From contig CALUPU010000005.1 of the NCBI GenBank assembly GCA_944322725.1, positions 62,001-126,000 on the forward strand: DNA of 64,000 bases, read 5' to 3'. This DNA is from Candidatus Gastranaerophilales bacterium. Lineage in GTDB: Bacteria > Cyanobacteriota > Vampirovibrionia > Gastranaerophilales > Gastranaerophilaceae. Of the stretch, positions 49,711 through 55,796 are shown in pieces. Made by a program: the position numbers and the translations under genes. The notes beneath the pieces were generated by a model that was not told where the DNA came from, made no database searches, and saw nothing but the letters and a program-made list of their open reading frames with translations. The first letter of the stretch is position 1, and the number at the start of each line of letters is the position of its first letter.

Positions 49711-52700
49711 TTATTCTTTACCTATTTTCCACTGGAGACCGCCCTGGAACCCGATACCTGTTCTGCCTCCGTTTCTCAGTGTAATCTGGAAGTATCCGTT
49801 AAATGTATCTTTGAATTTCTTCATTACACCGAGACCGTATTCAAAGTATGAGTGTCTCATTCTGACATATCCAAGGTCAATATTTCCTGCTTTGCCGTCA
49901 ACACCGCCCATTACATTGTATACCATCTGGGCTGTAGCATAAATACTGAAGGTTTTTTTCTGCCAGATGAGGTTAAAGCCCGGTGCTACGTTGATACCGT
50001 TAAGCATACCTGAACTCATGCTCATTGCACCGAAGTTAGAACTCCAGTTTTGCTGGCCGAATGCGTTATATGCCGCCATGATTGTAGGCTGGAATATGAA
50101 ATCATGAGGGAGATGGAAGTTGTATGCGGTTTTTGATGCAACACCTGCAAACCAGTTGCCTGTGGTATCACTGCCGCTGCCGTAACCGCCTCTGACGCTC
50201 ATGTCATTACCGTATCCGCCGCCGTAAGCAAGTAATGATGTGATGAAATCACCTTTGTATGCAGTACCCATTAAACCGATTTGAGCACCGTTCTGGTACA
50301 TACTTACACCGTTAAATGTCTGGTGAGCACCGTTGTATGCAATATAAGCTGTTGGAATAATGTTCCATCCGTTTTTAAGTGAAATTTGCGGGAAATCTGC
50401 ACCGACTAAAGAGCCGTATGCATTGTTGCCTACGCTGAGTCCTTTGGTCATCGAAAGACGTTCAAAGTTTCCGTAAGCTTTATACCAGAGGCTTCCGTCT
50501 TTCACACTGTACTGATACGGTGCAAACTGCGGATAAGCTGCTGCTCTGAGGTTTGCTGTTTTTGCATCATCCATAAGCTGTCTTGTTAAGACATTCATAT
50601 GGTCAAACAACATGTTGTTAACAACAAGCTGGTTCTGCCACGATGCAAGAGTAGCCACCTGTCCTCTGTACAGTTGAGGGTTAAGTGAAAGCAGACTTGC
50701 GTTAAGAATCGGATTGCCAGCACCTGAAGATGTAATCATGTATTGCCCCATGGCACTGTTTGCAACAACACCGCCGTCAGGAAGCTTGACTCTGTCAGGA
50801 TTGCCTCCGTTAGGGTCTGTTAACAGATTAGAAATATCAAATGTTACATTTCTGTCAATCGGTGAAGTTGTGAAGTTAATTCCTCCGATTAAAAGATTTT
50901 CACTGCCGCCGATTGTATTGTTTGAAATAATCCTGTCAGTAGTTTGTGATCTCGGATCAACATCAAACAGTATGTTGGCTGCGCTGTTGATTATAATATT
51001 ATCAGCAGTAATTGTATTTATTGCTCCGGATTGCATATTTATTGAGGGGCTGCTTGCAGAGCCTGCAGCGCCTATTGTCATATCACCTGTCACATTGATA
51101 TTTCCCAAAGCATTTAATGAAGATTTATCAGTCATTGTTAAACCTGTCATTAAAGCGTCTTTTCCTAATGTAACATTAGAGTTATCGCCTTTTATTGTTA
51201 CCTTCTCTAAATCAGATTCTCCGCCTACAGTCAATTTGGTATTATCAATTGTTACATCACCTATTGTTGCAAAATCATTGACTATATTTGCAATGGAGTT
51301 GGTCAATGTAGCATCAGCGCCTACTGCTAAATAATCACCGACAGATAAGTTTGCATCAGTAATTGTTAAAGAATCATTTGTCTCAATCGCTTTATCAACT
51401 GATAACGAACCGTTTGTTACTGTAATTTTACCGTCTGAAGCTGCCTGATTTTCAACAGCCAGATTACCTGCTATATGCAGTGCTCCGTTAGAAACAGAAA
51501 CTCCGCTCAGGAATTTATCTTCTGCTGATGCAAGGTCAAGAGAGCCGCCATTAACATTAACTGACCCGTTATAATTTTCAAGGGTTGATGTTATTACTGT
51601 TGAACCGCTGCCAATCTGGTTTATAGATGCGGTATCACTTGTTGAAGAAATAACAGGGTTGTATGTGACATTTCCTGTATTTGCAAAGTTTAATGAGGCA
51701 TTTTTTCCTATGCTGACTGTTGTATCATCTTTTATATAGGCGTTGTCTGCATAAGTAAGTTTTGTTGCTTCATTAAGTATAATACTGTCAGCTTCCGAGC
51801 CTGAACCATTGCCGAATGTAAGATCTCTTACACCTGCATCTTTGTTCAGTGTCAAGGTATCTCCTTCAACTCTTGTTCCGTTAAATAAGCCTAAGCCTCC
51901 GCCTGTGATATTAATATCAACAGTATTTCCATCAGAATTAATGTATTTTATTTCACCGTTTTCTAATACATCCTGAGTTATTCTGCTAATGCCGTCATCG
52001 CCTATTGTACTTTCGATTGCATTATAAATATGTACCGAACCGTATTCATCATATCCTTCAGCAGGATTTGCATTTGCAGTGGCATTTACTTCTGTTGTTA
52101 AATCCGCACCGTCTTTAAGAACAAGCGTTCCGCCTTCTACCGAATTGCTGCCGCGAAAGAATTTTGAACCGGCTTCTGCAATTACCGTGCCCATTTTCTG
52201 CAGGAAGTTGCCTGTAAATGTGCTGTTGTCAGATGTTATATTTATATTACCAACTCCTGCACCTATTTTTTCCGGATTGTCGGGTGATACAGGTTGATTT
52301 GAATCAAAATTAGGGTTATCTATCATTTTTTGATCAACAAGAACTTGACCATTACCGGAGACTTTTTCATCCAGTGTCATAGAATTTCCTTTGTCAGGTG
52401 ACAGTTTTAATGTTGCGGGGCTTGTTACATAAAATCCTTTTCCTCCTGCCGCATTTGTACTTCCGTTAGATAAGGTAAGTGTGTTATTTGATGCACCGTC
52501 TCCGATTTTAACCACATCTTCCGGTGTTGTTATTTGAGAAGTCCCTGATAGTATCAAATCCTGTGTAAAGGCTCCCGTAAAAGTAACTTCCGTATTAGCC
52601 AGATTGAAATAACCAGTTATATGTCCGTTTGTCGGGTCACCGCCTACTTGTAAACCTGTTGAGTCAAATATAGCTGATCCTACATTTACCACAACTGAAT

Positions 52701-54942
52701 CTGTGACATTAATCGCATCTATAATTTTGCCGCCCTGTTCAACTGTTAAGTAACCGCTTTTTAATGTACTGTCAGTTTTTAAGCTGCCTCCATCCTTAAC
52801 GGTAATAGATGCATCCGTTGATTCTTGAATTACATCAGCAATGCACGAGCCTTCAACTACAAGGTCTCCGTTATTTGTAAGGTTTCCTGAGGCTTCACCT
52901 GTATCTTGTATTGTAATCTGACCGTTGTTGATAATAGCAGAGGCATCTGTTGTTGTGGAAATAGAGCCGCCTATTTGAGCTGAAGCACCTTTTTCAATAA
53001 CAAATTTAGCACTGTCCTGTATAGAAATTGTTGAATCTTCTTCACTAATAAGACCGCTGCCTATGGATACATTATTTGCTCCATTTATATTAGTATCGGA
53101 ATTTGCCGCTGCGTATATATCATTGGCAATATTATTGGCATTGTTTTCACTGAAGCTGATATTCCCGTCTGTTGTATCAAGAGTCATGCCACCGGCGTTG
53201 TATATTGCACCACCGTCAGTTCCTGCTATATTACCGGTAAAAGAGGTATTCCCTTTTATTGTTAAATCAGCATCGCTTCCTCCATAAATTGTATTATATA
53301 TCGCGCCTCCGCTGCCTTTTGCTTCGTTGCCGATGAATGCGGAATCTTTACCGATTTCTGTTTGCGCACCCCAGTTTGAAATGGCTCCGCCTGTTTTTGC
53401 TGCTGTATTGTTTTCAAAAGTTGCACCATCTTTAATTGTAACAGTCGCTCCATTGCTGGCGTTAAAATTCATTATTGCTCCGCCATGAGATGAATTTGTA
53501 CTGTTTCCTATAAATTCAGCATTTTCACCTATGGTTACAGAAGATAAAGCTCCGTCGGTATCCTGATAAATTGCTCCTCCGCCATATCCTATTGCTGTAT
53601 TGTTATAAAACTTAGCATTATCGCCTATTTCTGTATTGGCACGCTGGTTATGCACAGCACCGCCTTGACCGCCAATGGATTGGTTGCCTATAAATAGCGC
53701 ATCATTACCTATTATTGTTTTTCCGCTGCCTGTATCAACCGTAGATATTGCACCGCCTACTGAGTTAGCTGTGTTATAGGCAAAAACGGCATTGTCCCCA
53801 AAGTTAATAATGGAACCTTCTCCGTAATTAGATACAGCACCGCCCTGGTTTGCAGTGTTTCCTGCAAAAATATTATTATCACCGCTAAAAGTAATATTAC
53901 CTCCGGCGTTATTAAAAATGGCACCGCCATTTTGTGCGGCAGTGTTGCCGTTTTGAGCACCAATGATATTATTATTTGTGTCTCTTATAATTTCACCGAA
54001 CGCAACATTTTCCAGTGTCATATCGGCAGGGTTATATATCGCGCCTCCGGAACCTGTTTGTGCCGAGTTATTTGTAAAAACAGCACTTTTAATTGCAGAA
54101 GATGCATTGTAAGACGGATCAGCATCAGTTGTAATATGAATTGCTCCGCCGTCTATGCCGGCTTTATTATTATCGAAAGAAACTATATTGTTTCCATCTC
54201 CTATATTAAGTGTAGTGTACTGACTGGCTATAGCACCACCGTATTTGCCGGCTTCATTATTTTTAAAAACAGAAGTTCCGTCAATAACAACCTTATTATT
54301 ATTTATTGCATAATATTGCCCCGCAAATATGGCACCGCCCCAAGAACCTGATTTGTTGCCGTCAAATGTTGTTGAAGTAATTTGAGTATTAGAATCTCCT
54401 GCATATATTGCACCTCCGAGTGAGCCTGCAACGTTTCCTTTGAAAACAGTGCCTTCACCTATAGTAAGTTGTGAAAGATTTGTTCCGTTTGTATCTACAT
54501 AAATTGCCCCACCCGATGAAAATGCAGGATTGCCTGTGATTGAATTATAACCGTTGTTTTCAAAAAGCACATTATCATGGATTGTGACAGAACCTCCATT
54601 CCAGGAAGCAATAGCACCGCCTGCAGAACGATAATTACCGTCATCTGAACTGGTAACAGGTTGATTCAGATAGTTTTCGACAAAGGAAGTACCGCTGCCT
54701 ATATCAACAATACCGCCGTTATTATAAATTGCGCCGCCGCCGTAATTTTGTGCCGTTGATGTATTATGTGTAAAGGTAGAGTTTTCTTCGACATTAAAGG
54801 TTTCACCAGTATTAACATACTTTGCTCCGCCGTTTGGTGCAGAACCGTTTTCATATACTTTAGCCAGTATTGCGGAGGTATTCATCAGACTTGATGTCAA
54901 TACAACAGCAACAACTAAACTCTTTGCACAATTTCTCCGCAT
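49711..54942 (-). CDS. Large autotransporter with Pmp-like GGA(I/V)/FxxN repeats
   Basis: The 1743-residue protein has a signal peptide (to about residue 28). The passenger (about 69-580) contains 17 GGAI or GGAV motifs, most followed or preceded by FxxN motifs (FVEN, FENN, FKGN, FDGN and others), forming a right-handed beta-helix. A longer region (about 600-1430) is low in such motifs and rich in Asn, Ser and Thr. The last 300 residues (from about 1435) are an autotransporter beta-barrel with alternating aromatic residues, ending FQGGLQWKIGKE. GGAI/FxxN repeats are the hallmark of chlamydial Pmp adhesins. It is read leftward; the minus-strand start has AGGAGAG upstream. Confidence 0.93.
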   Translation of the reverse strand: MRRNCAKSLVVAVVLTSSLMNTSAILAKVYENGSAPNGGAKYVNTGETFNVEENSTFTHNTSTAQNYGGGAIYNNGGIVDIGSGTSFVENYLNQPVTSSDDGNYRSAGGAIASWNGGSVTIHDNVLFENNGYNSITGNPAFSSGGAIYVDTNGTNLSQLTIGEGTVFKGNVAGSLGGAIYAGDSNTQITSTTFDGNKSGSWGGAIFAGQYYAINNNKVVIDGTSVFKNNEAGKYGGAIASQYTTLNIGDGNNIVSFDNNKAGIDGGAIHITTDADPSYNASSAIKSAVFTNNSAQTGSGGAIYNPADMTLENVAFGEIIRDTNNNIIGAQNGNTAAQNGGAIFNNAGGNITFSGDNNIFAGNTANQGGAVSNYGEGSIINFGDNAVFAYNTANSVGGAISTVDTGSGKTIIGNDALFIGNQSIGGQGGAVHNQRANTEIGDNAKFYNNTAIGYGGGAIYQDTDGALSSVTIGENAEFIGNSTNSSHGGAIMNFNASNGATVTIKDGATFENNTAAKTGGAISNWGAQTEIGKDSAFIGNEAKGSGGAIYNTIYGGSDADLTIKGNTSFTGNIAGTDGGAIYNAGGMTLDTTDGNISFSENNANNIANDIYAAANSDTNINGANNVSIGSGLISEEDSTISIQDSAKFVIEKGASAQIGGSISTTTDASAIINNGQITIQDTGEASGNLTNNGDLVVEGSCIADVIQESTDASITVKDGGSLKTDSTLKSGYLTVEQGGKIIDAINVTDSVVVNVGSAIFDSTGLQVGGDPTNGHITGYFNLANTEVTFTGAFTQDLILSGTSQITTPEDVVKIGDGASNNTLTLSNGSTNAAGGKGFYVTSPATLKLSPDKGNSMTLDEKVSGNGQVLVDQKMIDNPNFDSNQPVSPDNPEKIGAGVGNINITSDNSTFTGNFLQKMGTVIAEAGSKFFRGSNSVEGGTLVLKDGADLTTEVNATANANPAEGYDEYGSVHIYNAIESTIGDDGISRITQDVLENGEIKYINSDGNTVDINITGGGLGLFNGTRVEGDTLTLNKDAGVRDLTFGNGSGSEADSIILNEATKLTYADNAYIKDDTTVSIGKNASLNFANTGNVTYNPVISSTSDTASINQIGSGSTVITSTLENYNGSVNVNGGSLDLASAEDKFLSGVSVSNGALHIAGNLAVENQAASDGKITVTNGSLSVDKAIETNDSLTITDANLSVGDYLAVGADATLTNSIANIVNDFATIGDVTIDNTKLTVGGESDLEKVTIKGDNSNVTLGKDALMTGLTMTDKSSLNALGNINVTGDMTIGAAGSASSPSINMQSGAINTITADNIIINSAANILFDVDPRSQTTDRIISNNTIGGSENLLIGGINFTTSPIDRNVTFDISNLLTDPNGGNPDRVKLPDGGVVANSAMGQYMITSSGAGNPILNASLLSLNPQLYRGQVATLASWQNQLVVNNMLFDHMNVLTRQLMDDAKTANLRAAAYPQFAPYQYSVKDGSLWYKAYGNFERLSMTKGLSVGNNAYGSLVGADFPQISLKNGWNIIPTAYIAYNGAHQTFNGVSMYQNGAQIGLMGTAYKGDFITSLLAYGGGYGNDMSVRGGYGSGSDTTGNWFAGVASKTAYNFHLPHDFIFQPTIMAAYNAFGQQNWSSNFGAMSMSSGMLNGINVAPGFNLIWQKKTFSIYATAQMVYNVMGGVDGKAGNIDLGYVRMRHSYFEYGLGVMKKFKDTFNGYFQITLRNGGRTGIGFQGGLQWKIGKE

Positions 54943-55076: not shown

Positions 55077-55796
55077 CTATATTTCAGCTCCACCGTCTTT
55101 TTTCATTTTTTCGAGTGCTTTTTTAGCACCTGATGATTCTTTTGCAAGTTGTATTACAAACTCTGCAGCCTGAGCGTCACGTGCAATTGCTTCTTTTAAA
55201 GAGAGTATTTCTTCAACTGTCATTTCATTTGTATCTGACATATTTTCCAGATTTTCTTTAAATAAATCCTGAGAAAGTTCGTCATATCCGGGCAGATTTT
55301 TCTTAAATCCGTACCATTTGTGAAACTGATGAAGCATATAATATATATTTATATCCATGTCACGAAGAACAAACATTTCCGGAGATTTAAAAGCCAGGTG
55401 TAATTTTTTTTCTGCCGTGAAACCTGTTATTAAATTTAAATAAAAAGCCTTCCACCCGCTCAATGGTGTTATAAAACCTTCTTCTTCATTTATTTTTGCC
55501 AGTATTTTATCGGCGTGTGCTATTTTATAAACAGGTGTTCCGTGTTCTTTAATAAAATTCAGCAGGTTGTCAGGATTTGTAAAACAGGCTTTTACAATAT
55601 TTTTCACTTCACTGTCCATTGCCTCGAGAATTTTTTCTGTTTGCGTTGACAGAGTCATTGTCTCAGACGCGTTGATATGTGTTTTTGTTGTGGAGTTTGT
55701 ATAGGTGCGGGGCTTGAGTTTTTCCATTGTTTTCTCAAGCTTTTCACGTCTTCTCTCCAGAATATAATTTACAATTTTGGATATAAATCTGTTCAT
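55077..55796 (-). CDS. Hypothetical helical protein
   Basis: The 239-residue protein is not one I recognise. It is charged and mostly helical, has no signal peptide or membrane span, and begins MNRFISKIVNYILERRREKL. A Trp/Tyr/Phe-rich middle (about 110-170, with GWKAFYLNLITGF and INIYYMLHQFHKWYGF) may be a globular core. It lies 134 bases upstream of the autotransporter, in the same direction, and its relation to that gene is unknown. Confidence 0.6.
   Translation of the reverse strand: MNRFISKIVNYILERRREKLEKTMEKLKPRTYTNSTTKTHINASETMTLSTQTEKILEAMDSEVKNIVKACFTNPDNLLNFIKEHGTPVYKIAHADKILAKINEEEGFITPLSGWKAFYLNLITGFTAEKKLHLAFKSPEMFVLRDMDINIYYMLHQFHKWYGFKKNLPGYDELSQDLFKENLENMSDTNEMTVEEILSLKEAIARDAQAAEFVIQLAKESSGAKKALEKMKKDGGAEI

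What the first reader, a model, noticed from the sequence alone, without database searches (positions are those of the whole stretch)
49711..54942. Chlamydial-Pmp-like autotransporter in a cyanobacterium-related lineage
Seventeen GGA(I/V) motifs alternating with FxxN motifs and a C-terminal barrel reproduce the Pmp layout, which was thought typical of Chlamydiae. Pmp proteins are adhesins, so this may be a host- or cell-attachment factor acquired by transfer or shared ancestry. The C terminus ends in Lys-Glu, not the usual aromatic residue of barrels.
Basis: partly seen in the sequence, partly recalled or inferred. Interest (0 to 1): 0.65.

Follow-up and report, generated by a model that had tools for sequence, protein, structure and literature searches.

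The report
Pmp-repeat autotransporter in gut melainabacteria
A gut bacterium of the non-photosynthetic cyanobacterial lineage makes a long surface spike built like Chlamydia's Pmp proteins and exported through an ordinary autotransporter barrel; this kind of spike is already known from many bacteria, but this lineage carries several fast-changing copies of it.

Summary
The gene encodes a 1743-aa type Va autotransporter with 17 GGA(I/V) motifs paired with FxxN (0.6 expected in shuffles) and a 12-stranded C-terminal barrel. Relatives are gut "Candidatus Gastranaerophilales" MAGs. [quoted passage not shown] coli K-12 YfaL. The Chlamydia-specific middle domain (PF07548) does not match. The barrel is a divergent ordinary autotransporter barrel: its fold matches NalP, EspP and AIDA-I, and close relatives match PF03797. 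This barrel subfamily was found only in the window's own family (70 of 85 sampled genomes). The Lys-Glu ending is ordinary for the subfamily. What appears unreported is the lineage-wide family: up to 14 places per genome, 68 of 72 complete genes with Pmp motif pairs, motif residues as conserved as the barrel (80% and 81%) while the rest of the repeat region is 33%, and passenger dN/dS about 5 to 17 times the barrel's. An adhesin or self-association role is inferred, not shown. Verdict: new member of a known kind, moderate interest.

The parts
49711..54942 (-). whole gene, 1743-aa Pmp-repeat type Va autotransporter, stop codon included
54859..54942 (-). signal peptide (residues 1-28)
   Evidence: read from the sequence: charged start, hydrophobic core, small residues before the mature part; relatives start alike; no predictor was run
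53203..54774 (-). Pmp repeat region (residues 57-580): 17 GGA(I/V) and their FxxN partners, one pair per predicted rung
52663..54858 (-). modelled beta-solenoid (residues 29-760), pLDDT 91, pTM 0.91
   Evidence: generic beta-helix matches
53110..53154 (-). last rung of the repeat region (residues 597-611, FSEN...NDIY), where an Asn-Asp-Ile invariant in 13 relatives replaces GGA(I/V)
   Evidence: likeness to the conserved Asp of chlamydial rung 0 (PMC10715098) is a lead, not tested
50983..52662 (-). membrane-near half of the passenger (residues 761-1320), no canonical motif pairs, partly hypervariable (1141-1320)
   Evidence: not modelled
50623..50982 (-). conserved stretch before the barrel (residues 1321-1440), a possible autochaperone region
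   Evidence: 54-60% mean identity to relatives against 25-28% just upstream; function inferred from position
49714..50622 (-). 12-stranded autotransporter barrel with N-terminal helix (residues 1441-1743)

Best explanation
A classical (type Va) autotransporter. The signal peptide sends it through Sec; BamA-type Omp85 machinery inserts the 12-stranded C-terminal barrel into the outer membrane; the passenger is passed out and folds outside into a long beta-solenoid rod. In the outer (N-terminal) part each turn is stapled by an FxxN/GGA(I,V) pair that serves as scaffold, while the variable faces and loops are the working surface. Most likely it stays on the cell as a variable spike for attachment (mucosa, glycans or other cells). 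Shown here: domain layout, barrel fold, beta-solenoid prediction, conservation pattern, family expansion. Inferred: export route, surface location, attachment.
For: Signal-peptide-like start and 17 motif pairs; PF02415 and TIGR01376. Barrel model with helix plus 12 strands; best solved matches are autotransporter barrels: NalP Z 28.9 rmsd 2.0 over 258 residues, EspP 28.3, Hbp 27.8, AIDA-I 26.4. Subfamily members G171:C18 and G150:C30 match both the window profile (6e-143, 1e-140) and PF03797 (3.7e-12, 6.4e-12). Passenger model pLDDT 91, all beta. Two Omp85 proteins in the genome. Motif residues 80% conserved, rest of repeat region 33%, barrel 81%. Passenger dN/dS 0.24-0.37, barrel 0.02-0.06. 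11 or more dispersed copies in sister genomes.
Against: No binding, export or surface data. The window barrel itself does not match PF03797 by sequence, and hhalign against four E. coli barrels was not significant. Barrel model confidence is only moderate (67.5) and its helix is poor. Fast passenger change could be relaxed constraint rather than exposure to hosts or phages.
Confidence: 0.72

Rival explanations
1. Self-association rather than host attachment: the rod zips cells together (Ag43-like) and the gene serves aggregation or biofilm.
For: Foldseek's best, weak, passenger matches are the self-associating autotransporters Ag43 and TibA; the first rungs carry the longer loops.
Against: Matches are weak (E about 1e-3, TM about 0.2), and VIA-align prefers other beta-helices, so they say little beyond the fold class.
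Confidence: 0.2
2. A true chlamydial Pmp relative, gained by transfer between Chlamydiae and this lineage, with host-cell adhesin function kept.
For: Same motif pair, similar rung length and number, same order of repeat region and barrel.
Against: PF07548 does not match; the barrel does not match PF03797 directly, the family that covers the chlamydial barrels (PMC10715098), and its kin are confined to the window's own family; the repeat is widespread (PMC10715098; PMC11166332).
Confidence: 0.04
3. The passenger is a glycan-active enzyme (lyase or epimerase type beta-helix) exported on the cell surface.
For: The highest VIA-align scores of the passenger model are to alginate epimerase AlgG (Z 26.8, rmsd 2.3 over 286 residues) and related beta-helix enzymes.
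Against: These are among the commonest solved beta-helices, so a generic rod fits them. No enzyme family matched in Pfam. Outside the scaffold motifs the region is only 33% conserved, which does not suit an active site. Catalytic residues were not compared.
Confidence: 0.04

Closest known systems
Chlamydial polymorphic membrane proteins (Pmp family)
   Same: Signal peptide, long FxxN/GGA(I,V,L) repeat region, C-terminal autotransporter barrel, several paralogs per genome with variable passengers.
   Different: No PF07548 middle region; barrel of a subfamily confined to the window's own family; most turns between motifs are short (4-6 residues), with longer loops only in the first three pairs.
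E. coli K-12 YfaL
   Same: PF02415 repeats in the passenger with an autotransporter barrel.
   Different: YfaL matches PF03797, AC_1 and PATR directly; this protein matches none of them, and it has more Pmp motif stretches (9 against 2 passing the threshold).
Pmp-repeat autotransporter of Akkermansia glycaniphila (A0A1C7PBX1, from PMC11166332)
   Same: Non-chlamydial bacterium with a Pmp-repeat passenger and an autotransporter barrel.
   Different: Another phylum; 43 predicted coils; not compared here by sequence.
Type Va autotransporters NalP, EspP, AIDA-I (translocator domains)
   Same: 12-stranded barrel with an N-terminal helix; VIA-align Z 26-29.
   Different: Only 11-15% sequence identity; passengers unrelated beyond a beta-solenoid.

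Membership tests
Type Va autotransporter | C-terminal 12-stranded barrel with an N-terminal helix | tested here: met
   AF2 model; NalP Z 28.9, EspP 28.3, AIDA-I 26.4. The helix part has low confidence.
Type Va autotransporter | Sequence kinship with PF03797 | tested here: met
   Not direct (none; none in the own genome). Met through relatives: G171:C18, G150:C30, G136:C27 and others match both the window profile and PF03797 above its cut-off.
Type Va autotransporter | Passenger on the same chain, with signal peptide | tested here: met
   One ORF; beta-solenoid passenger; signal peptide read from the sequence, no predictor run
Type Va autotransporter | Surface export through BAM | not testable with these tools
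   Omp85 proteins present; export itself needs an experiment
PF02415 (Chlam_PMP repeat) proteins | Repeated match to the FxxN/GGA repeat model over the cut-off | tested here: met
   74.5 bits against a cut-off of 20.6, nine stretches
Chlamydial Pmp family proper | Pmp middle region PF07548 | tested here: not met
   No match in the Pfam scan at E <= 1. No match in 194 phylum genomes either, but no control rang there, so that part is inconclusive.
Chlamydial Pmp family proper | Barrel grouping with chlamydial Pmp barrels | not tested
   No chlamydial barrel sequences were fetched
Adhesin | Binding to a cell, matrix or glycan | not testable with these tools
   Needs a binding assay

The most novel reading that the evidence does not exclude
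Gut Gastranaerophilales keep a Pmp-like, multi-copy, rapidly diverging surface repertoire, built by repeated lineage-specific duplication on a barrel subfamily of their own, which works like the chlamydial Pmp repertoire (variable adhesin and antigen set) without being derived from it.
Probability: 0.35. Interest if true: 0.55.

Novelty: new member of a known kind. Interest (0 to 1): 0.36.

Why it matters
Little is known of how gut melainabacteria touch their surroundings; searches of the held literature for autotransporters or Pmp proteins in this group gave nothing relevant. A conserved syntenic locus plus expanded paralogs gives concrete candidates for attachment and for exposure to host immunity or phages. 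It also shows again that the FxxN/GGA rung is a general scaffold and should not be read as a chlamydial signature.

Tried and rejected
(1) No barrel kin: the direct Pfam scan and hhalign against four E. coli K-12 barrels found nothing significant, but the fold match and intermediate relatives supply the link. (2) A tree labelled PMP/nopmp seemed to show many barrels without Pmp repeats; this was my artefact, because loci L035-L064 carried only 1.5 kb of flank. With full genes 68 of 72 have the repeats, so only the topology is used. (3) Concerted evolution of barrels between sister species: only two loci pairs share flanking genes (L068/L082, L080/L091), so separate expansions are the simpler reading; flanks were short. 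(4) Phase variation by homopolymers: one 7-base run only (T at 49953). (5) PDB sequence searches found nothing significant. (6) PHROGs found nothing for the gene or its upstream neighbour. (7) Promoter-like sites were 30 against 20.5 in shuffles and terminators at chance; nothing is built on them. (9) No chlamydial or Ag43 passenger kinship can be read from the weak Foldseek matches.

Full report
WHAT IS THERE. The ORF at 49711-54942 (-) encodes 1743 aa. It has 17 GGA[IV] motifs at residues 69-577 and 18 FxxN motifs at residues 57-597; shuffles of the protein give on average 0.6 GGA motifs, maximum 5. Sixteen of the GGA motifs have an FxxN just upstream. The stretch between the two motifs is 4-6 residues in 13 of the 16 pairs and longer (8, 17, 13) in the first three; GGA spacing is 26-40 residues. 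Pfam finds PF02415 (E 1.5e-21), NCBIfam TIGR01376 (1.4e-21), and nothing else.

WHO CARRIES IT. The window lies on contig C5 of a 1.91 Mb genome, 95.6% complete. Close relatives of the barrel (55-92% identical) are in MAGs named Candidatus Gastranaerophilales, plus one uncultured-bacterium MAG. The locus is partly syntenic: the 239-aa upstream neighbour lies upstream and co-oriented in seven of these 19 loci and in opposite orientation in one; one relative (L029) has the genes of the window's other side next to its copy. Many of the 19 loci hold too little flank to tell.

THE BARREL. The last 303 residues are predicted as a helix plus 12 strands (mean pLDDT 67.5, pTM 0.71). Solved type Va barrels come out on top: NalP Z 28.9 (rmsd 2.0, 258 residues), EspP 28.3, Hbp 27.8, AIDA-I 26.4, BrkA 25.5. 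By sequence the window barrel matches no Pfam family and the own genome has no PF03797 match. Sister genomes close the gap: G171:C18 and G150:C30 score 6e-143 and 1e-140 with the window-based profile and 3.7e-12 and 6.4e-12 with PF03797 over its whole length; several G132 copies reach about 1e-17. So this is a divergent ordinary autotransporter barrel. The subfamily was found in 70 of 194 phylum genomes, all within the window's own family (70 of 85 sampled) and none outside.

THE C TERMINUS. The Lys-Glu ending is a short tail after a normal last strand. Among 80 barrels of the subfamily the last residue is K in 31, L in 19, E in 13, I in 7 and F in 4, and the last strand keeps a G-hydrophobic-x-aromatic-x-hydrophobic type of pattern.

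THE PASSENGER. Residues 29-760 are predicted with high confidence (pLDDT 91.2, pTM 0.91) as turns of an all-beta solenoid. PDB matches are generic beta-helices (Ag43, TibA, pertactin by Foldseek, weak; AlgG and Vag8 by VIA-align), as reported for chlamydial Pmps (PMC10715098). Motif residues are 80% conserved among 15 relatives, the rest of the repeat region 33%, the barrel 81%. Passenger identity to full-length relatives is 33-58% where the barrel is 73-92%. Passenger dN/dS is 0.24-0.37 against 0.02-0.06 in the barrel, about 5 to 17 times higher within pairs, with 49-622 gap columns per pair (seven pairs have a usable barrel value and several have high dS, so the ratios are rough). This fits a scaffold with a free outer surface; it does not separate relaxed constraint from selection by hosts or phages.

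A FAMILY. The own genome has a second full copy (C5:2736-6101, 1122 aa, 12 GGA motifs) and two 24-residue barrel ends at contig edges (C30, C4), probably further copies broken in assembly. Sister genomes G180, G140 and G132 have 14, 13 and 12 places, some of them fragments at contig ends. Of 72 complete genes of the barrel family, 68 have at least three FxxN-GGA pairs, more than any of their shuffles (that pattern also allows GGG for GGA; a few of the 72 are the same gene fetched under two names, e.g. L017 and L081). In G180 several copies share about 140-340 bases at the 5' end (84-97%) and the last 1-1.5 kb (about 77-89%), while the region between matches only in patches. In the barrel tree the expanded copies of G180 and of G140 form separate groups, and their flanks do not match apart from two conserved loci, so the expansions look lineage-specific.

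EXPORT MACHINERY. Two Omp85 proteins are present. LptD was not detected, but the controls rang only in E. coli and Caulobacter, so the model may miss cyanobacterial types.

COMPARISON WITH WHAT IS KNOWN. FxxN/GGA repeats outside Chlamydia are established: over 100 non-chlamydial species in PF02415, with Methanobrevibacter, Phycisphaerae and Trichomonas examples (PMC10715098), and an Akkermansia protein as best hit of a rung profile (PMC11166332). Here E. coli K-12 YfaL also carries PF02415 with a PF03797 barrel, and ten genomes of other families in the window's phylum carry PF02415. Both papers conclude that the motifs are buried scaffold. The chlamydial middle region PF07548 is not matched in this protein. 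The protein therefore works like a Pmp in layout but fails the one chlamydial-family feature that could be tested. Literature searches for autotransporters or Pmp proteins in Gastranaerophilales or Melainabacteria gave nothing relevant; subscription papers and preprints were not searched.

VERDICT. A new member of a known kind. The part worth keeping is the lineage-wide, expanded, fast-changing family in a poorly known group of gut bacteria.

Noticed in passing
window 55077-55796 (-): A 239-aa protein with no Pfam or PHROGs match lies 134 bases upstream of the autotransporter gene, co-oriented, and keeps this place in seven relatives (66-82% identical). Function unknown; a possible partner or operon mate.
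   Followed up: partly
G092:C7 about 329500-346200 (L006): An 8459-aa open frame with many PF02415 repeats, far longer than the window protein.
   Followed up: no
L106 (G000:C30) and L107 (G000:C4): Two contigs of the own genome begin or end inside the same 24-residue barrel end, so further copies of the family are probably lost at assembly breaks; sister MAGs show the same.
   Followed up: partly
L067-L080 (G180): Dispersed paralogs share a near-identical 5' start and a similar barrel, with divergent sequence between, which would suit exchange of passenger parts by recombination; not tested further.
   Followed up: partly
own genome G000: No match to the LptD family (PF04453) although Omp85 proteins and a large outer-membrane autotransporter are present.
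   Followed up: no
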